Of a DNA stretch of 64,000 bases, positions 2,021 through 15,892 are shown one piece after another (position 1 is the first letter of the stretch; the number at the start of each line of letters is the position of its first letter). The stretch lies in NCBI GenBank assembly GCA_001797335.1, contig MGPE01000005.1, forward strand, positions 186,001 to 250,000, in the 5' to 3' direction. A model generated the notes under the pieces. The model searched no databases. It was not told the DNA's origin and saw nothing but the letters and a program-made list of their open reading frames with translations. The position numbers were made by a program, and so were the translations under genes. This DNA comes from Deltaproteobacteria bacterium GWA2_38_16. GTDB lineage: Bacteria; Bdellovibrionota; JACOXK01; 2-02-FULL-40-11.

Positions 2021-3162
2021 AAAAAAATATTTTCAGCCATTTTTTCTTGGCTGCTATTTTCATAGAGGGGGGAACATTTACCCCCTTCTATGGTTTGAAT
2101 AAAGATCAAAAAAGTGTATCCGTAAAATCTTTTCGTATAGATGATGCTCCTGTAACCAAGCAGCAATTTTTTAATCATGTCTCTAAGCGGGGGAATGTGC
2201 CGGTAACCTATGTGTCGTGGGATGATGCACAAGCGTATTGCAAGGCTCGGGGAGGCAGACTCCCCACTGTTTTTGAGTGGGAATATGTAGGCAGTGCCAG
2301 TGAGACTCAAAAAGATGCTTCGAAGGATCCAAAATTTATTCAAAAACTTTTAGAGTGGTATTCAAAGCCCGTTGATGAAGCTAAAATTCCAGAGGTTAAG
2401 CAGGGAAAACCCAATGTTTGGGGAGTGTACGACATGCATGGAGTGGTGTGGGAATGGGTCTATGATTTTAATAGTAGCTTTGTCACCGGAGATAATCGTC
2501 AGGATAAAGATAAACTCAAAGATTTGTTTTGTGGAGCAGGAGGAGAAGGTGCTCAAGACCGAATTAATTACGCAGCCTTTATGCGATATGCATTGAGAAG
2601 TAGTTTAAAAGCATCTTATAAACTTATGAATCTAGGATTTCGGTGTGCTTATGATGAAAAAAATCAGGACGAGAATATTCAAACGTCTCTTGATTTATCT
2701 CCCTATCGCTCTCATTTTGTGGTGATCACGATGACGTATACGAGCTGCCAATCGGCTTGTCCTTTGATTATAAAAAAATTAAAAACCATTTTAAAAGCAT
2801 TAGGGGGAGATATCCAAAATATTGAATTTGTGGTGGTGACGTTTGATCCAACTATTGACACAGCTTCTCATCTTTTAGAATACCAAAAAAAACAAGGTCT
2901 TGATTTTCAAAATTGGCATTTTTTAAGCGGTTCCGAAGAAGAAACCCGAAAGATGTCTTTATTTTTAGATATTTCTTATCAAAAAGATGCTACGACGGGG
3001 CACTTTATGCACAGCAATAAAATTATTCTTTTAAATCCTGAGGGTCAAAAGGTAGTAACCCTAGATGGTTTGGATTCTGATATTGAGCCACTTTTAAAAG
3101 CCATGGGTAAAACACCCAAAGCTTCTTTTTTCAAAAAACTTAAAAATTATTTTACCTTTTAA
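2017..3162 (+). CDS. NirV-like SUMF1 domain fused to SCO1/SenC copper chaperone
   Basis: Two domains in one 381-aa chain behind an N-terminal hydrophobic segment. Residues about 17-215 are a formylglycine-generating-enzyme (SUMF1) fold, with motifs [24 protein letters not shown] and a C-terminal NLGFRC. This is the family of NirV, a known partner of copper nitrite reductases. Residues about 230-375 are SCO1/SenC, with the copper motif C244-x3-C248 and the conserved His in the GHFMHS segment (H329/H332). It overlaps nirK by 4 nt, so the two are probably co-translated. Likely role: maturation or copper loading of the adjacent NirK (inference from the families). The 3' end overlaps the convergent gene by 11 nt. 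Confidence 0.88.
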
Positions 3163-13264: not shown

Positions 13265-13290
13265 GTCATTCCCGACTCGATCGGGAATCC
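13265..13290. repeat. GTCAT palindromic element forming the 3' end of a gene
   Basis: The element starts GTCATTCCCGA and has 8-bp arms ATTCCCGA (13268-13275) and TCGGGAAT (13281-13288) around CTCGA. On the minus strand it encodes the last residues (DSRSSRE) and the TGA stop of the small membrane protein. Confidence 0.85.
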
Positions 13291-13631
13291 AGTCTCCTTA
13301 CCTTAAAATAAGAAAGTAAAATAATAAAGAAAATTGGAAAATCAATAGCAGCTCCTAATCCATAGAGAAGATTTTCGGTTCGAAAAAGCGCACCCATAAA
13401 AAAAATACTGCTGCTGATTTTTGCGATTAATACCCCTCTGATAGCACTATGGTTTAAAGGAAATTTTGAACCTTCATAAGAAAGGTAGGAAATGGTCATC
13501 ATCATCGATCCGGCCAGTGCCACCCAAAAGTATTCACTATTTAAAGGAAGTCCCAAAAGGCGCAACGTCATATCAGGGCGGATGACAAAAAAAAGGCCAA
13601 CACCTAGAAAGCAAATAGACCAAAAAAGCAT
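13266..13631 (-). CDS. Small four-helix membrane protein, unknown function
   Basis: 121 aa from ATG 13631; an upstream ATG at 13730 would run through a 34-bp repeat and looks artificial. It is almost all hydrophobic, with about four helices and short loops. No motif is recognised. The C-terminal residues and stop codon come from a palindromic repeat, so the ancestral C-terminus was probably different. It reads in the same direction as the lipocalin/GMC operon downstream (gap 7 nt), so it may be its first gene. Before the putative cassette insertion it would have lain 43 nt after the porin stop. Confidence 0.55.
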   Translation of the reverse strand: MLFWSICFLGVGLFFVIRPDMTLRLLGLPLNSEYFWVALAGSMMMTISYLSYEGSKFPLNHSAIRGVLIAKISSSIFFMGALFRTENLLYGLGAAIDFPIFFIILLSYFKVRRLDSRSSRE

Positions 13632-13674: not shown

Positions 13675-13708
13675 TTAAAATCGTAAAGATGCAACGAGAG
13701 ATAATAAA
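13675..13708. repeat. Left 34-bp direct repeat of the MNT-HEPN cassette
   Basis: Identical over 34 bases and in the same orientation to 14747-14780. Read on the minus strand it carries the final codons and stop of the porin gene, but here it is detached from that gene. Confidence 0.95.
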
Positions 13709-13754
13709 ACCTACCCATGCTTCGTTTCATAAAAAGTAATAATATATTGCTTTT

Positions 13755-13775
13755 AATGTAATATTATGTTACATT
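13755..13775. promoter_or_regulatory. Palindrome before the MNT-HEPN operon, probable autoregulatory operator
   Basis: AATGTAA (13755-13761) and TTACATT (13769-13775) form perfect 7-bp arms around TATTATG. The site ends 8 bases before the first start codon. The first protein has an N-terminal winged-helix region, so binding by its own product is the simplest reading. Confidence 0.6.
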
Positions 13776-13782
13776 TTAAGTA

Positions 13783-14337
13783 ATGATTATGAGGACATTT
13801 TACGTCAGTGTTCTTGAGTTAGCACTTTTGGAGAAGCTTATCGTTTTTGGGCGCTCTTATACACATGAGTTGTCTAAAAATCTAACTATTTCGCCTGCCC
13901 ATGTGAATCGACTGTGCCATGCGCTGAGAAAGCGGCAGATATTGAATGTTTCTTCTCAGGAGAATCGAAAATTTTTTGAGTTGAATTATCAGTGTTTGTT
14001 AACAAGAGAATTGCTACGGTTTATAACCGTAATTAAAATAAAAAATTCTAAATATTTTCGAAAATTAGGAGAAATATGCCCTTTTGGAGTTTTTGGAAGT
14101 TTTTCGGAAGGGATGCAAACAAAAGAAAGCGATTTGGATCTATGGGTATTTTCTGACCGTTCTTTTGAAAAAAAAATCCGTTTAATTATAAATGATATTG
14201 AAAAAGAATGGGAACATATCATTAATATTGTTTATCTGGATAAAAATAAGCTTGAAATAATGAAAAAAAATGATCCAGAATTTTATTATCGCCTTCGATC
14301 CCAATCGCTTACAGAAAGGGGAGATATTTTTGAATAA
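13783..14337 (+). CDS. MNT-type nucleotidyltransferase with N-terminal HTH (antitoxin candidate)
   Basis: 184 aa. Residues about 1-70 look like a winged helix-turn-helix (KLIVFGRSYTHELSKNL, then a NRLCHALRKRQIL recognition segment). Residues about 95-170 are a minimal nucleotidyltransferase with GSFSEG (105-110) and the catalytic pair D117 and D119 in SDLDLW. In known MNT-HEPN systems this partner is the antitoxin and modifies the HEPN toxin with AMP. It overlaps the HEPN gene by 8 nt. The N-terminal HTH suggests that it also represses its own promoter. Confidence 0.82.
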   Translation: MIMRTFYVSVLELALLEKLIVFGRSYTHELSKNLTISPAHVNRLCHALRKRQILNVSSQENRKFFELNYQCLLTRELLRFITVIKIKNSKYFRKLGEICPFGVFGSFSEGMQTKESDLDLWVFSDRSFEKKIRLIINDIEKEWEHIINIVYLDKNKLEIMKKNDPEFYYRLRSQSLTERGDIFE

Positions 14338-14758
14338 ACTTAAAGATTGTTTTGAAAAGAAGTTTTTAGTCAGAACGCGCCCTGAACCTGAATTAGCTAA
14401 AAAATCTTTAAAACGTGGTTTAGCAACGATTGAGGATGTACCCAAAGCTTTAAAAGCAGATTTAGATGAGCTGGCTGAACAAAGGCTGTATCAAAGTGTG
14501 TTCCATGGAGTAAAAGCATTACTCTATAAAGATGGCATTAAAGAAAGATCACATATTTGCGTCAGTTTATATTTTAAAGAAACGTATCAGAAGTTTTTTT
14601 CTAAAGATCTTTTAACCTTATTGGATCGATTAAGGGATGTTCGCCATGAATCTCAATATGGTCTTGATGCCGTTGCCATGAATTCAGAACAAATTCAAAA
14701 TTGGTTAGCAGAGGCAGAACAACTTTTAAAAGTAATTTCTCAGCTTTTAAAATCGTAA
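14330..14758 (+). CDS. HEPN-domain protein (toxin candidate)
   Basis: 142 aa from a TTG start at 14330, chosen because AAAGGGGAG precedes it and because it overlaps the end of the MNT gene as is usual for such pairs. Helical throughout. The RLRDVRH stretch gives the HEPN RNase motif R100-x5-H106, with a Tyr at 110 that could be the AMP acceptor (the spacing H-x3-Y differs from the H-x-Y known in HepT). The last codons (LLKS) and stop lie inside the right 34-bp repeat, and the gene converges with the porin with 12 nt of overlap. Confidence 0.78.
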   Translation: MNKLKDCFEKKFLVRTRPEPELAKKSLKRGLATIEDVPKALKADLDELAEQRLYQSVFHGVKALLYKDGIKERSHICVSLYFKETYQKFFSKDLLTLLDRLRDVRHESQYGLDAVAMNSEQIQNWLAEAEQLLKVISQLLKS

Positions 14759-14780
14759 AGATGCAACGAGAGATAATAAA
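14747..14780. repeat. Right 34-bp direct repeat, 3' end of the porin gene
   Basis: Exact copy of 13675-13708. On the minus strand it encodes the last ten residues and stop of the porin (final residues SLRF); on the plus strand it contains the stop of the HEPN gene. Two proteins therefore end inside the same repeat. Confidence 0.95.
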
Positions 14781-15892
14781 TTATCAGCAGTGTCGTTAAT
14801 GCCTGATCCCTTGGTATAATTAATATCGTATCCTAATTTGAGGAGCATATTATCAGAGCATCGATATCCCCCACCAAAAGAATATCGGGAGTAAACGTTG
14901 GCCGTAACACTATTTAAAGAAGCGGTGGTAGAAGCCCCTCTTAGTTTAATGGTACTAACGCGACCGGCCAGATAAAAATGAGACAAGACGTTCCATACAT
15001 CCGGTAAATTCCATAATGATTCTACAAAACCAAAATGAGCTTGTCTTTTTTGAGCATTCCCGCCGGTAGATCCATCTTTAAAAGCACCCAAAGAAAATCT
15101 AAAAAATGCCTGGCTATCAGAATATGCAGGAGGATTTAAAGGTTTTTTGCCTTTGCCTAAATCATATCTAAAATCTATTTCTGCCACCTGCCTTGTCCAA
15201 TTTGTTGCACCGCTAGCAGGAGCTGTAATTCCTGCAATAGACATGTCTGCTGAAGATGCTTTTAATTTTCCAGAATGGTAGTAACTGGTGCTGATAAAGA
15301 GAGGATCTATCGGAGTGTAAAATAATCTTCCTAAAAAAGATTTTCCTTGGCCAGAATCCGATCCTACAACACTATTTCCATTTCCGACGGCTACAACCCA
15401 TATTTTCCCTGATAGCTCTATCCCCTCATCGGTGACGCCTACGTTTGCAGCTGAGTTAGAAGGAAGGATGCCTTCAACGACGTTATTGGTTTGGGTTTCT
15501 TCTCCAAAGGGCTGTTTAAATCTTCCCAGTCTGCCGCTTACATTAAACCACGTATTTCTTAAAGCGGGAATAAAATCTTTGGCTTGTAAAAATAAATAAT
15601 CGACTAAAGGAGTGTTGTTCCCCCCATTATTTAAATTAAATCGAAAAGTAGCAGAATTGAAATCATCTGCCTGGAACATAAACACCAATTTTGCTTCAGG
15701 TACTTCAAAAGAACCACTTCTAAAGCTAGAGGTTTGTCCTTGGGAATTATAAAAAGCACTTGCAGCTCTTCCGCTGAGCTTTAATTTAGAAAGCAGATTT
15801 GAAAGATCAACTTTGGGAGATTCTTCCCCATAGGCAAATGGGGATATGAATAAAGAAATTAAAATAATTGTTATGATGGAGTGTGGCTTCAT
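14747..15892 (-). CDS. Outer-membrane beta-barrel porin
   Basis: 381 aa. The start at 15892 overlaps the moaE stop (ATGA) and gives a Sec signal peptide ending near FAYGEE. The mature chain has alternating hydrophobic strands, Gly/Ser/Asn-rich loops and a C-terminal strand ending in Phe (SLVASLRF), the classic outer-membrane insertion signal. A segment GRLGRFKQPFGEETQTNN resembles phosphate-selective/OprP-like porins. It is co-directional with moaD and moaE behind a shared CRP/FNR operator, which suggests a channel for nitrate, nitrite or molybdate (inference). The 3' end is the target of the MNT-HEPN cassette. Confidence 0.8.
   Translation of the reverse strand: MKPHSIITIILISLFISPFAYGEESPKVDLSNLLSKLKLSGRAASAFYNSQGQTSSFRSGSFEVPEAKLVFMFQADDFNSATFRFNLNNGGNNTPLVDYLFLQAKDFIPALRNTWFNVSGRLGRFKQPFGEETQTNNVVEGILPSNSAANVGVTDEGIELSGKIWVVAVGNGNSVVGSDSGQGKSFLGRLFYTPIDPLFISTSYYHSGKLKASSADMSIAGITAPASGATNWTRQVAEIDFRYDLGKGKKPLNPPAYSDSQAFFRFSLGAFKDGSTGGNAQKRQAHFGFVESLWNLPDVWNVLSHFYLAGRVSTIKLRGASTTASLNSVTANVYSRYSFGGGYRCSDNMLLKLGYDINYTKGSGINDTADNLLSLVASLRF

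What the first reader, a model, noticed from the sequence alone, without database searches (positions are those of the whole stretch)
13675..14780. Minimal MNT-HEPN cassette bounded by exact 34-bp direct repeats at a porin gene end
The right repeat is the last ten codons plus stop of the porin gene; the left repeat is a detached copy of the same bases. Between them is only a toxin-antitoxin pair with its own operator. Removing one repeat and the interior (1072 bp) would place the porin stop 43 nt before the next co-directional gene, a normal operon layout. The HEPN stop codon also lies inside the repeat. This is what integration at a gene 3' end with target restoration would leave, but without any recombinase. 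It could be a trans-mobilised defence cassette type.
Basis: partly seen in the sequence, partly recalled or inferred. Interest (0 to 1): 0.85.

Follow-up and report, generated by a model that had tools for sequence, protein, structure and literature searches.

The report
Toxin-antitoxin cassette with duplicated target ends
A compact two-gene toxin-antitoxin cassette has been inserted at the end of a porin gene and is framed by two exact 34-base copies of that gene's end; relatives of the cassette in other bacteria are framed by different duplications of their own target sites, so these cassettes seem to insert with target duplication although they carry no insertion enzyme.

Summary
Two identical 34-bp copies of the porin gene's last bases frame only an HTH-MNT gene and a HEPN gene. 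No other copy exists in the 2.0-Mb genome at up to 3 mismatches, and no recombinase lies between them. The interior is unusually AT-rich.
No genus-mate with an empty porin site is held, so that insertion cannot be shown directly. The cassette family can be tested: 10 of about 68 independent MNT-HEPN loci have significant flanking direct repeats, against 2 of 697 random anchors and 0 of 27 VapBC-type loci. The repeats differ at every locus. In a second member of the phylum the repeat carries the stop codons of both convergent neighbours (pyk and a BrnA-like gene), so both genes survived because the target was duplicated. In Omnitrophota the junction holding a cassette is empty in about 15 relatives. 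One cassette present in two genomes at 92% identity ends exactly at a 48-bp duplication in one of them.
So: a mobile, enzyme-free MNT-HEPN module that inserts with long, variable target duplication. A fixed att core is not supported. The machinery is unknown.

The parts
13675..13708 (.). left 34-bp direct repeat: detached copy of the porin gene 3' end
   Evidence: exact repeat
13709..13782 (+). promoter/operator region of the pair; palindrome TGTAATATTATGTTACA at 13757-13773
   Evidence: sequence inspection; in three related cassettes the corresponding upstream promoter block is part of the conserved unit
13783..14337 (+). HTH + minimal nucleotidyltransferase (MNT), catalytic motif GSX10DXD (GSFSEGMQTKESDLD)
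   Evidence: PF18765 7.8e-8, PF01909 5.9e-7; PADLOC PDC-M05A 6e-12
14330..14758 (+). HEPN protein (probable TTG start overlapping the MNT stop); last three codons and stop lie in the right repeat
   Evidence: PF05168 1.6e-12; PDB UPF0332 AF0298 E=0.0015
14747..14780 (.). right 34-bp direct repeat: native 3' end of the porin gene, also holds the HEPN stop
14747..15892 (-). porin-like outer-membrane protein gene (target gene, intact)
   Evidence: relatives at 50-53% identity; the one in G006 aligns almost to the C-terminus
13266..13631 (-). downstream small membrane protein gene, co-directional with the porin, now separated from it by the cassette (start 13631 or about 13657)
   Evidence: relatives in G001, G003, G006, G007 at 47-55% identity

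Best explanation
A compact non-autonomous MNT-HEPN toxin-antitoxin cassette (its own promoter/operator, HTH-MNT antitoxin, HEPN toxin) was inserted recently into the junction between the porin gene and the next gene. The insertion duplicated 34 bp of target, so the porin kept an intact 3' end and the HEPN gene borrowed its stop codon from that copy. Shown: the repeats, the gene content, the absence of an enzyme inside, the atypical base composition, and the same architecture with locus-specific duplications in related cassettes. Inferred: the way it happened. The duplications vary in length (24, 34, 37, 48, 52, 84 bp) and share no sequence, which fits capture of a mobile fragment at a staggered break or by replication template switching (microhomology) better than a transposase with a fixed duplication or an integrase with a fixed core. 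The bias to gene ends may be selection for insertions that leave both neighbours working.
For: Exact 34-bp pair, unique in the genome. Interior GC 32.5% vs 38.2%; only 0.5% of equal-sized window stretches are as low. 10 of 69 (68 after removing one duplicate) MNT-HEPN loci have flank-vs-flank alignment score of 20 or more, against 0.22 expected from cross-locus pairs, 2/697 random anchors in the same contigs (Fisher p about 1e-9) and 0/27 VapBC-type loci. G006: a 37-bp repeat (1 mismatch) contains the stop of pyk and the stop of the convergent BrnA-like gene; the pyk C-terminus is native, conserved in relatives. L072: cassette at the mnmG stop, while about 15 Omnitrophota relatives have mnmG-cysK adjacent without it. 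L162/L147: 92% identical over 1.3 kb, homology starting where L162's left 48-bp repeat ends; the right junction shares about 14 bp with the unit's own end, a microhomology. L146/L148: 79% identical units with unrelated repeats of 84 and 52 bp.
Against: No empty porin site could be seen directly. Most MNT-HEPN loci (about 85%), including the two distant paralogues in this genome and 8 plasmid copies, show no repeat now; age may explain this but it is not shown. In several positive loci (L062, L072, L147, partly L162) and in G002 the repeat is or contains a dispersed REP-like element, so another route is possible there; L152 may be two copies of a small gene. The microhomology and template-switch step rests on one locus.
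Confidence: 0.66

Rival explanations
1. Site-specific integration: the cassette carries an attP that copies the porin 3' end and a tyrosine recombinase acts in trans.
For: Gene-3'-end target with restoration is the classic pattern (own knowledge); a tyrosine recombinase gene directly follows the pair on one plasmid (Sulfuricella); no enzyme lies inside the window cassette.
Against: The core differs between loci, even for related cassettes; the 34-mer is absent elsewhere in the genome and in viral contigs; in G006 the duplicated block spans two convergent coding ends, which an element-borne attP would not be expected to match.
Confidence: 0.17
2. Remnant of a larger integrative element: att-like ends remain and everything but the addictive toxin-antitoxin pair was deleted.
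For: Toxin-antitoxin pairs resist loss (own knowledge); repeats at a gene end look like attL/attR; larger repeat-bounded segments with extra genes exist (G002, L053).
Against: The conserved unit runs from promoter to HEPN stop and sits tightly inside the repeats in several unrelated cases, with no debris of other genes.
Confidence: 0.1
3. Mobilisation through REP-like repeats (HUH/Y1 RAYT-type transposase or recombination between REPs), for the subset whose ends are REP-like.
For: L062, L147, L162, L155 and L102 share GGGTC(A/G)GGCTTGA-type repeats at cassette edges; L072's 23-mer occurs twice more in its genome; G002's repeat is a palindromic dispersed element.
Against: The window and G006 repeats are gene ends, not REPs; known Y1 elements are not expected to duplicate targets (own knowledge). 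Presence of a RAYT gene was not tested.
Confidence: 0.05
4. The left copy is a local duplication unrelated to the arrival of the pair, or coincidence.
For: No empty site is available for the porin junction.
Against: Enrichment of flanking repeats at this cassette family over random anchors and VapBC-type loci; exact flanking of a low-GC two-gene insert.
Confidence: 0.02

Closest known systems
MNT-HEPN toxin-antitoxin modules (Makarova 2009, PMC2701414; HepT-MntA type VII)
   Same: Two-gene operon of minimal nucleotidyltransferase and HEPN, mobile between genomes; presence/absence between Thermus thermophilus HB8 and HB27 and between Deinococcus species was already reported
   Different: Here MNT carries an N-terminal HTH and HEPN is of PF05168/UPF0332 type without the RX4-6H histidine; MNT scores far below the NCBIfam MntA cut-off (22 vs 60 bits). 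Direct repeats are not mentioned in that paper.
PADLOC phage-defence candidate PDC-M05 (nucleotidyltransferase + HEPN; PMC12988326)
   Same: MNT hits PDC-M05A (6e-12), HEPN weakly PDC-M05B (0.0035)
   Different: Antiviral activity of PDC-M05 is unconfirmed in the paper; no insertion mechanism is described in the passages read
Tyrosine-recombinase integrative elements at gene 3' ends (IMEs, islands)
   Same: Direct repeat at a gene end with the gene restored
   Different: No integrase, about 1 kb, locus-specific repeats without a shared core
REP/REPIN elements with RAYT transposases (PMC3116915)
   Same: Some related cassettes are edged by REP-like repeats
   Different: The window repeat is a unique gene end; RAYT not tested

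Membership tests
MNT-HEPN toxin-antitoxin module / PDC-M05 | MNT with GSX10DXD motif next to a HEPN gene in one operon | tested here: met
   Pfam hits; motif GSFSEGMQTKESDLD; overlapping reading frames
HepT-MntA type VII system | HEPN RX4-6H RNase motif (HepT type) | tested here: not met
   Motif reads R-x3-[DQ]-Y with no histidine in the window, like L034 and L026 and solved UPF0332 protein AF0298; not filed as HepT
MNT-HEPN toxin-antitoxin module / PDC-M05 | toxicity neutralised by MNT; antiviral effect | not testable with these tools
   needs experiment
HepT-MntA type VII system | MntA model NF047752 score above curated cut-off | tested here: not met
   22.4 bits vs cut-off 60
Tyrosine-recombinase integrative element | integrase within the element | tested here: not met
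   only two genes between the repeats
Tyrosine-recombinase integrative element | constant att core shared by insertions | tested here: not met
   repeats differ between loci; 34-mer nowhere else
Tyrosine-recombinase integrative element | target at a gene 3' end, restored by the duplication | tested here: met
   porin; pyk and BrnA-like gene in G006; mnmG in L072
DNA transposon / MITE | terminal inverted repeats and fixed-length target duplication | tested here: not met
   no inverted repeat pairs the two cassette ends; duplication lengths vary from 24 to 84 bp
REP/RAYT-mobilised element | dispersed palindromic REP at the ends | tested here: not met
   window 34-mer occurs only twice; met in some relatives

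The most novel reading that the evidence does not exclude
MNT-HEPN cassettes are a class of enzyme-free mobile unit that inserts at gene ends by a common process leaving long, variable, locus-specific target duplications, either driven by an unrecognised host or phage activity or by repeated capture of cassette DNA during repair.
Probability: 0.4. Interest if true: 0.8.

Novelty: new variant of a known kind. Interest (0 to 1): 0.62.

Why it matters
Toxin-antitoxin and candidate defence pairs spread widely without visible machinery. Long target duplications that differ at each site are a footprint from which the route of spread can be read and tested. It would give a concrete answer to how solitary pairs move, and a rule for finding the exact ends and the empty sites of such cassettes.

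Tried and rejected
Looking for an empty porin site: only other genera of the same family or class are held; the porin and the downstream gene are not neighbours in G006 and the G001 porin contig ends inside the gene. Searching the 34-bp core with other cargo: none. Relatives of this MNT in viral contigs, phages and plasmids: none. Distant relatives on plasmids: 8 loci read, no flanking repeats. G002 (L028) first looked like a third case, but its 45-bp repeat is a dispersed palindrome and an extra gene lies inside; not counted. The own-genome paralogues (C6, C8) and the second HEPN pair (C5:129 kb) have no clear repeats. The first alignment of seven MNT proteins was too diverse to search with.

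Full report
Observation. The window holds two identical 34-bp sequences at 13675-13708 and 14747-14780. The right one is the end of a minus-strand porin gene, stop codon included; the left one is a detached copy. In the whole 2.0-Mb genome there is no third copy, even with three mismatches. Between them lie an HTH-nucleotidyltransferase gene (13783-14337) and a HEPN gene (about 14330-14758) and nothing else of note. The last HEPN codons and its stop are supplied by the right repeat. The interior is 32.5% GC against 38.2% for the window, a value reached by only 0.5% of equal-sized stretches.

What the genes are. The MNT protein has the full GSX10DXD motif and hits PF18765 and PF01909; PADLOC places it nearest candidate defence system PDC-M05A. 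HEPN hits PF05168 and the solved UPF0332 protein AF0298. It lacks the RX4-6H histidine (alignment), and MNT is far below the MntA equivalog cut-off, so it is an MNT-HEPN module but not shown to be a HepT-MntA system.

No direct empty site. Five genomes of the same family and two of the same class are held, none of the same genus. The porins found are about 50% identical, and in G006 the porin and the downstream gene lie about 17 kb apart. So the porin junction itself could not be compared with an empty version.

The family test. If the reading is right, other MNT-HEPN cassettes should be framed by repeats. A distant pair in G006 (same class) is framed by a 29-bp exact repeat, 37 bp with one mismatch. 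The repeat contains the pyk stop and, in the opposite direction, the last codons and stop of a BrnA-like antitoxin gene. Both neighbours therefore keep an intact end because the sequence is present twice. The pyk C-terminus is native, being conserved in relatives. I then assembled 69 MNT loci, the window and G006 included (68 independent after removing one duplicate), from named genomes and from species genomes and aligned left flank against right flank in each. Ten score 20 or more, against 0.22 expected from pairs of different loci, 2 of 697 random anchors in the same contigs, and 0 of 27 PIN-domain (VapBC-type) loci from the same set of genomes (p about 1e-9 against anchors, 0.06 against PIN). 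In about 306 kb of partly overlapping sequence from this phylum, the only direct repeats of 25 bp or more within 6 kb flank MNT genes; one of these, in G002, is a dispersed palindrome.

Empty sites and unit ends. In an Omnitrophota genome (L072) the cassette sits on the mnmG stop codon with a 24-bp repeat (one mismatch). About 15 related genomes have mnmG followed by cysK with roughly 20-270 bp between them and no cassette. Three related cassettes (own contig C8, G006, G002; about 75% identical DNA) share a block of about 1070 bp from the promoter to the HEPN stop and, between all three, nothing outside it. L162 and L147, from two different genomes, are 92% identical over 1.3 kb; the homology begins where L162's left 48-bp repeat ends, and those 48 bp are absent from L147's left flank. 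At the right junction the unit's own end and the duplicated target share about 14 bp. L146 and L148 carry 79% identical units with unrelated repeats of 84 and 52 bp.

Mechanism. Repeats that differ between loci in sequence and length do not fit one att core or a transposase with a fixed duplication. They fit insertion of a compact unit with target duplication of variable length, such as capture at a staggered break or template switching with microhomology. This last step is inferred; the microhomology is seen in one locus. A recombinase acting in trans on element-borne copies of the target remains possible. In one subset (L062, L147, L162, L155, L102, with L072 and G002 as further types) the edges are REP-like repeats, so a REP-based route may also operate.

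Limits. The score threshold was chosen after seeing the data, although both nulls are far below the observed count. Some positives are REP-like, one (L152) may be two copies of a small gene, and L147 is marginal. Most loci, including 8 on plasmids, show no repeats. Nearly all sequences are metagenome assemblies.

Literature. MNT-HEPN modules are known to be mobile, with strain-level presence and absence reported by Makarova 2009 (PMC2701414), where direct repeats are not mentioned. PDC-M05 is described as an unconfirmed defence candidate (PMC12988326). My searches of the open library found no report of long target duplications at such cassettes, but that library is incomplete.

Noticed in passing
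L034:1414-2533 (own genome, contig C8): A second cassette, a close relative of the G006 one (about 75% identical DNA), sits between a Nudix gene and a tRNA-Pro(CGG) gene that starts about 30 bp after the HEPN stop; no repeats remain.
   Followed up: partly
L033:1423-2464 (own genome, contig C6): A third HTH-MNT/HEPN pair in this genome, without flanking repeats.
   Followed up: partly
L028:883-927 and 2962-3006 (G002): A dispersed palindromic GGTGTTCGCGTAGCGCGC element brackets an MNT-HEPN pair plus an unknown 272-aa gene; the HEPN frame there has an internal stop.
   Followed up: partly
L162 and L147: REP-like repeats GGGTCAGGCTTGACAAACTTGAATAA lie at both edges of 92%-identical MNT-HEPN units in two genomes.
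   Followed up: partly
L053:4001-4680 compared with L084: MNT with most of its HEPN partner deleted, inside a 3-kb segment framed by an imperfect direct repeat of about 80 bp.
   Followed up: no
L077:682 and 2160; L080:1256 and 3729: Repeats of 35 and 32 bp frame the segment directly upstream of MNT genes, possibly neighbouring cassettes.
   Followed up: no
L047:914-1902 (own genome, C5:128.5-129.5 kb): Another MNT-like/HEPN pair of a different type, MNT preceded by a ribbon-helix-helix-like N-terminus; no clear flanking repeats.
   Followed up: partly
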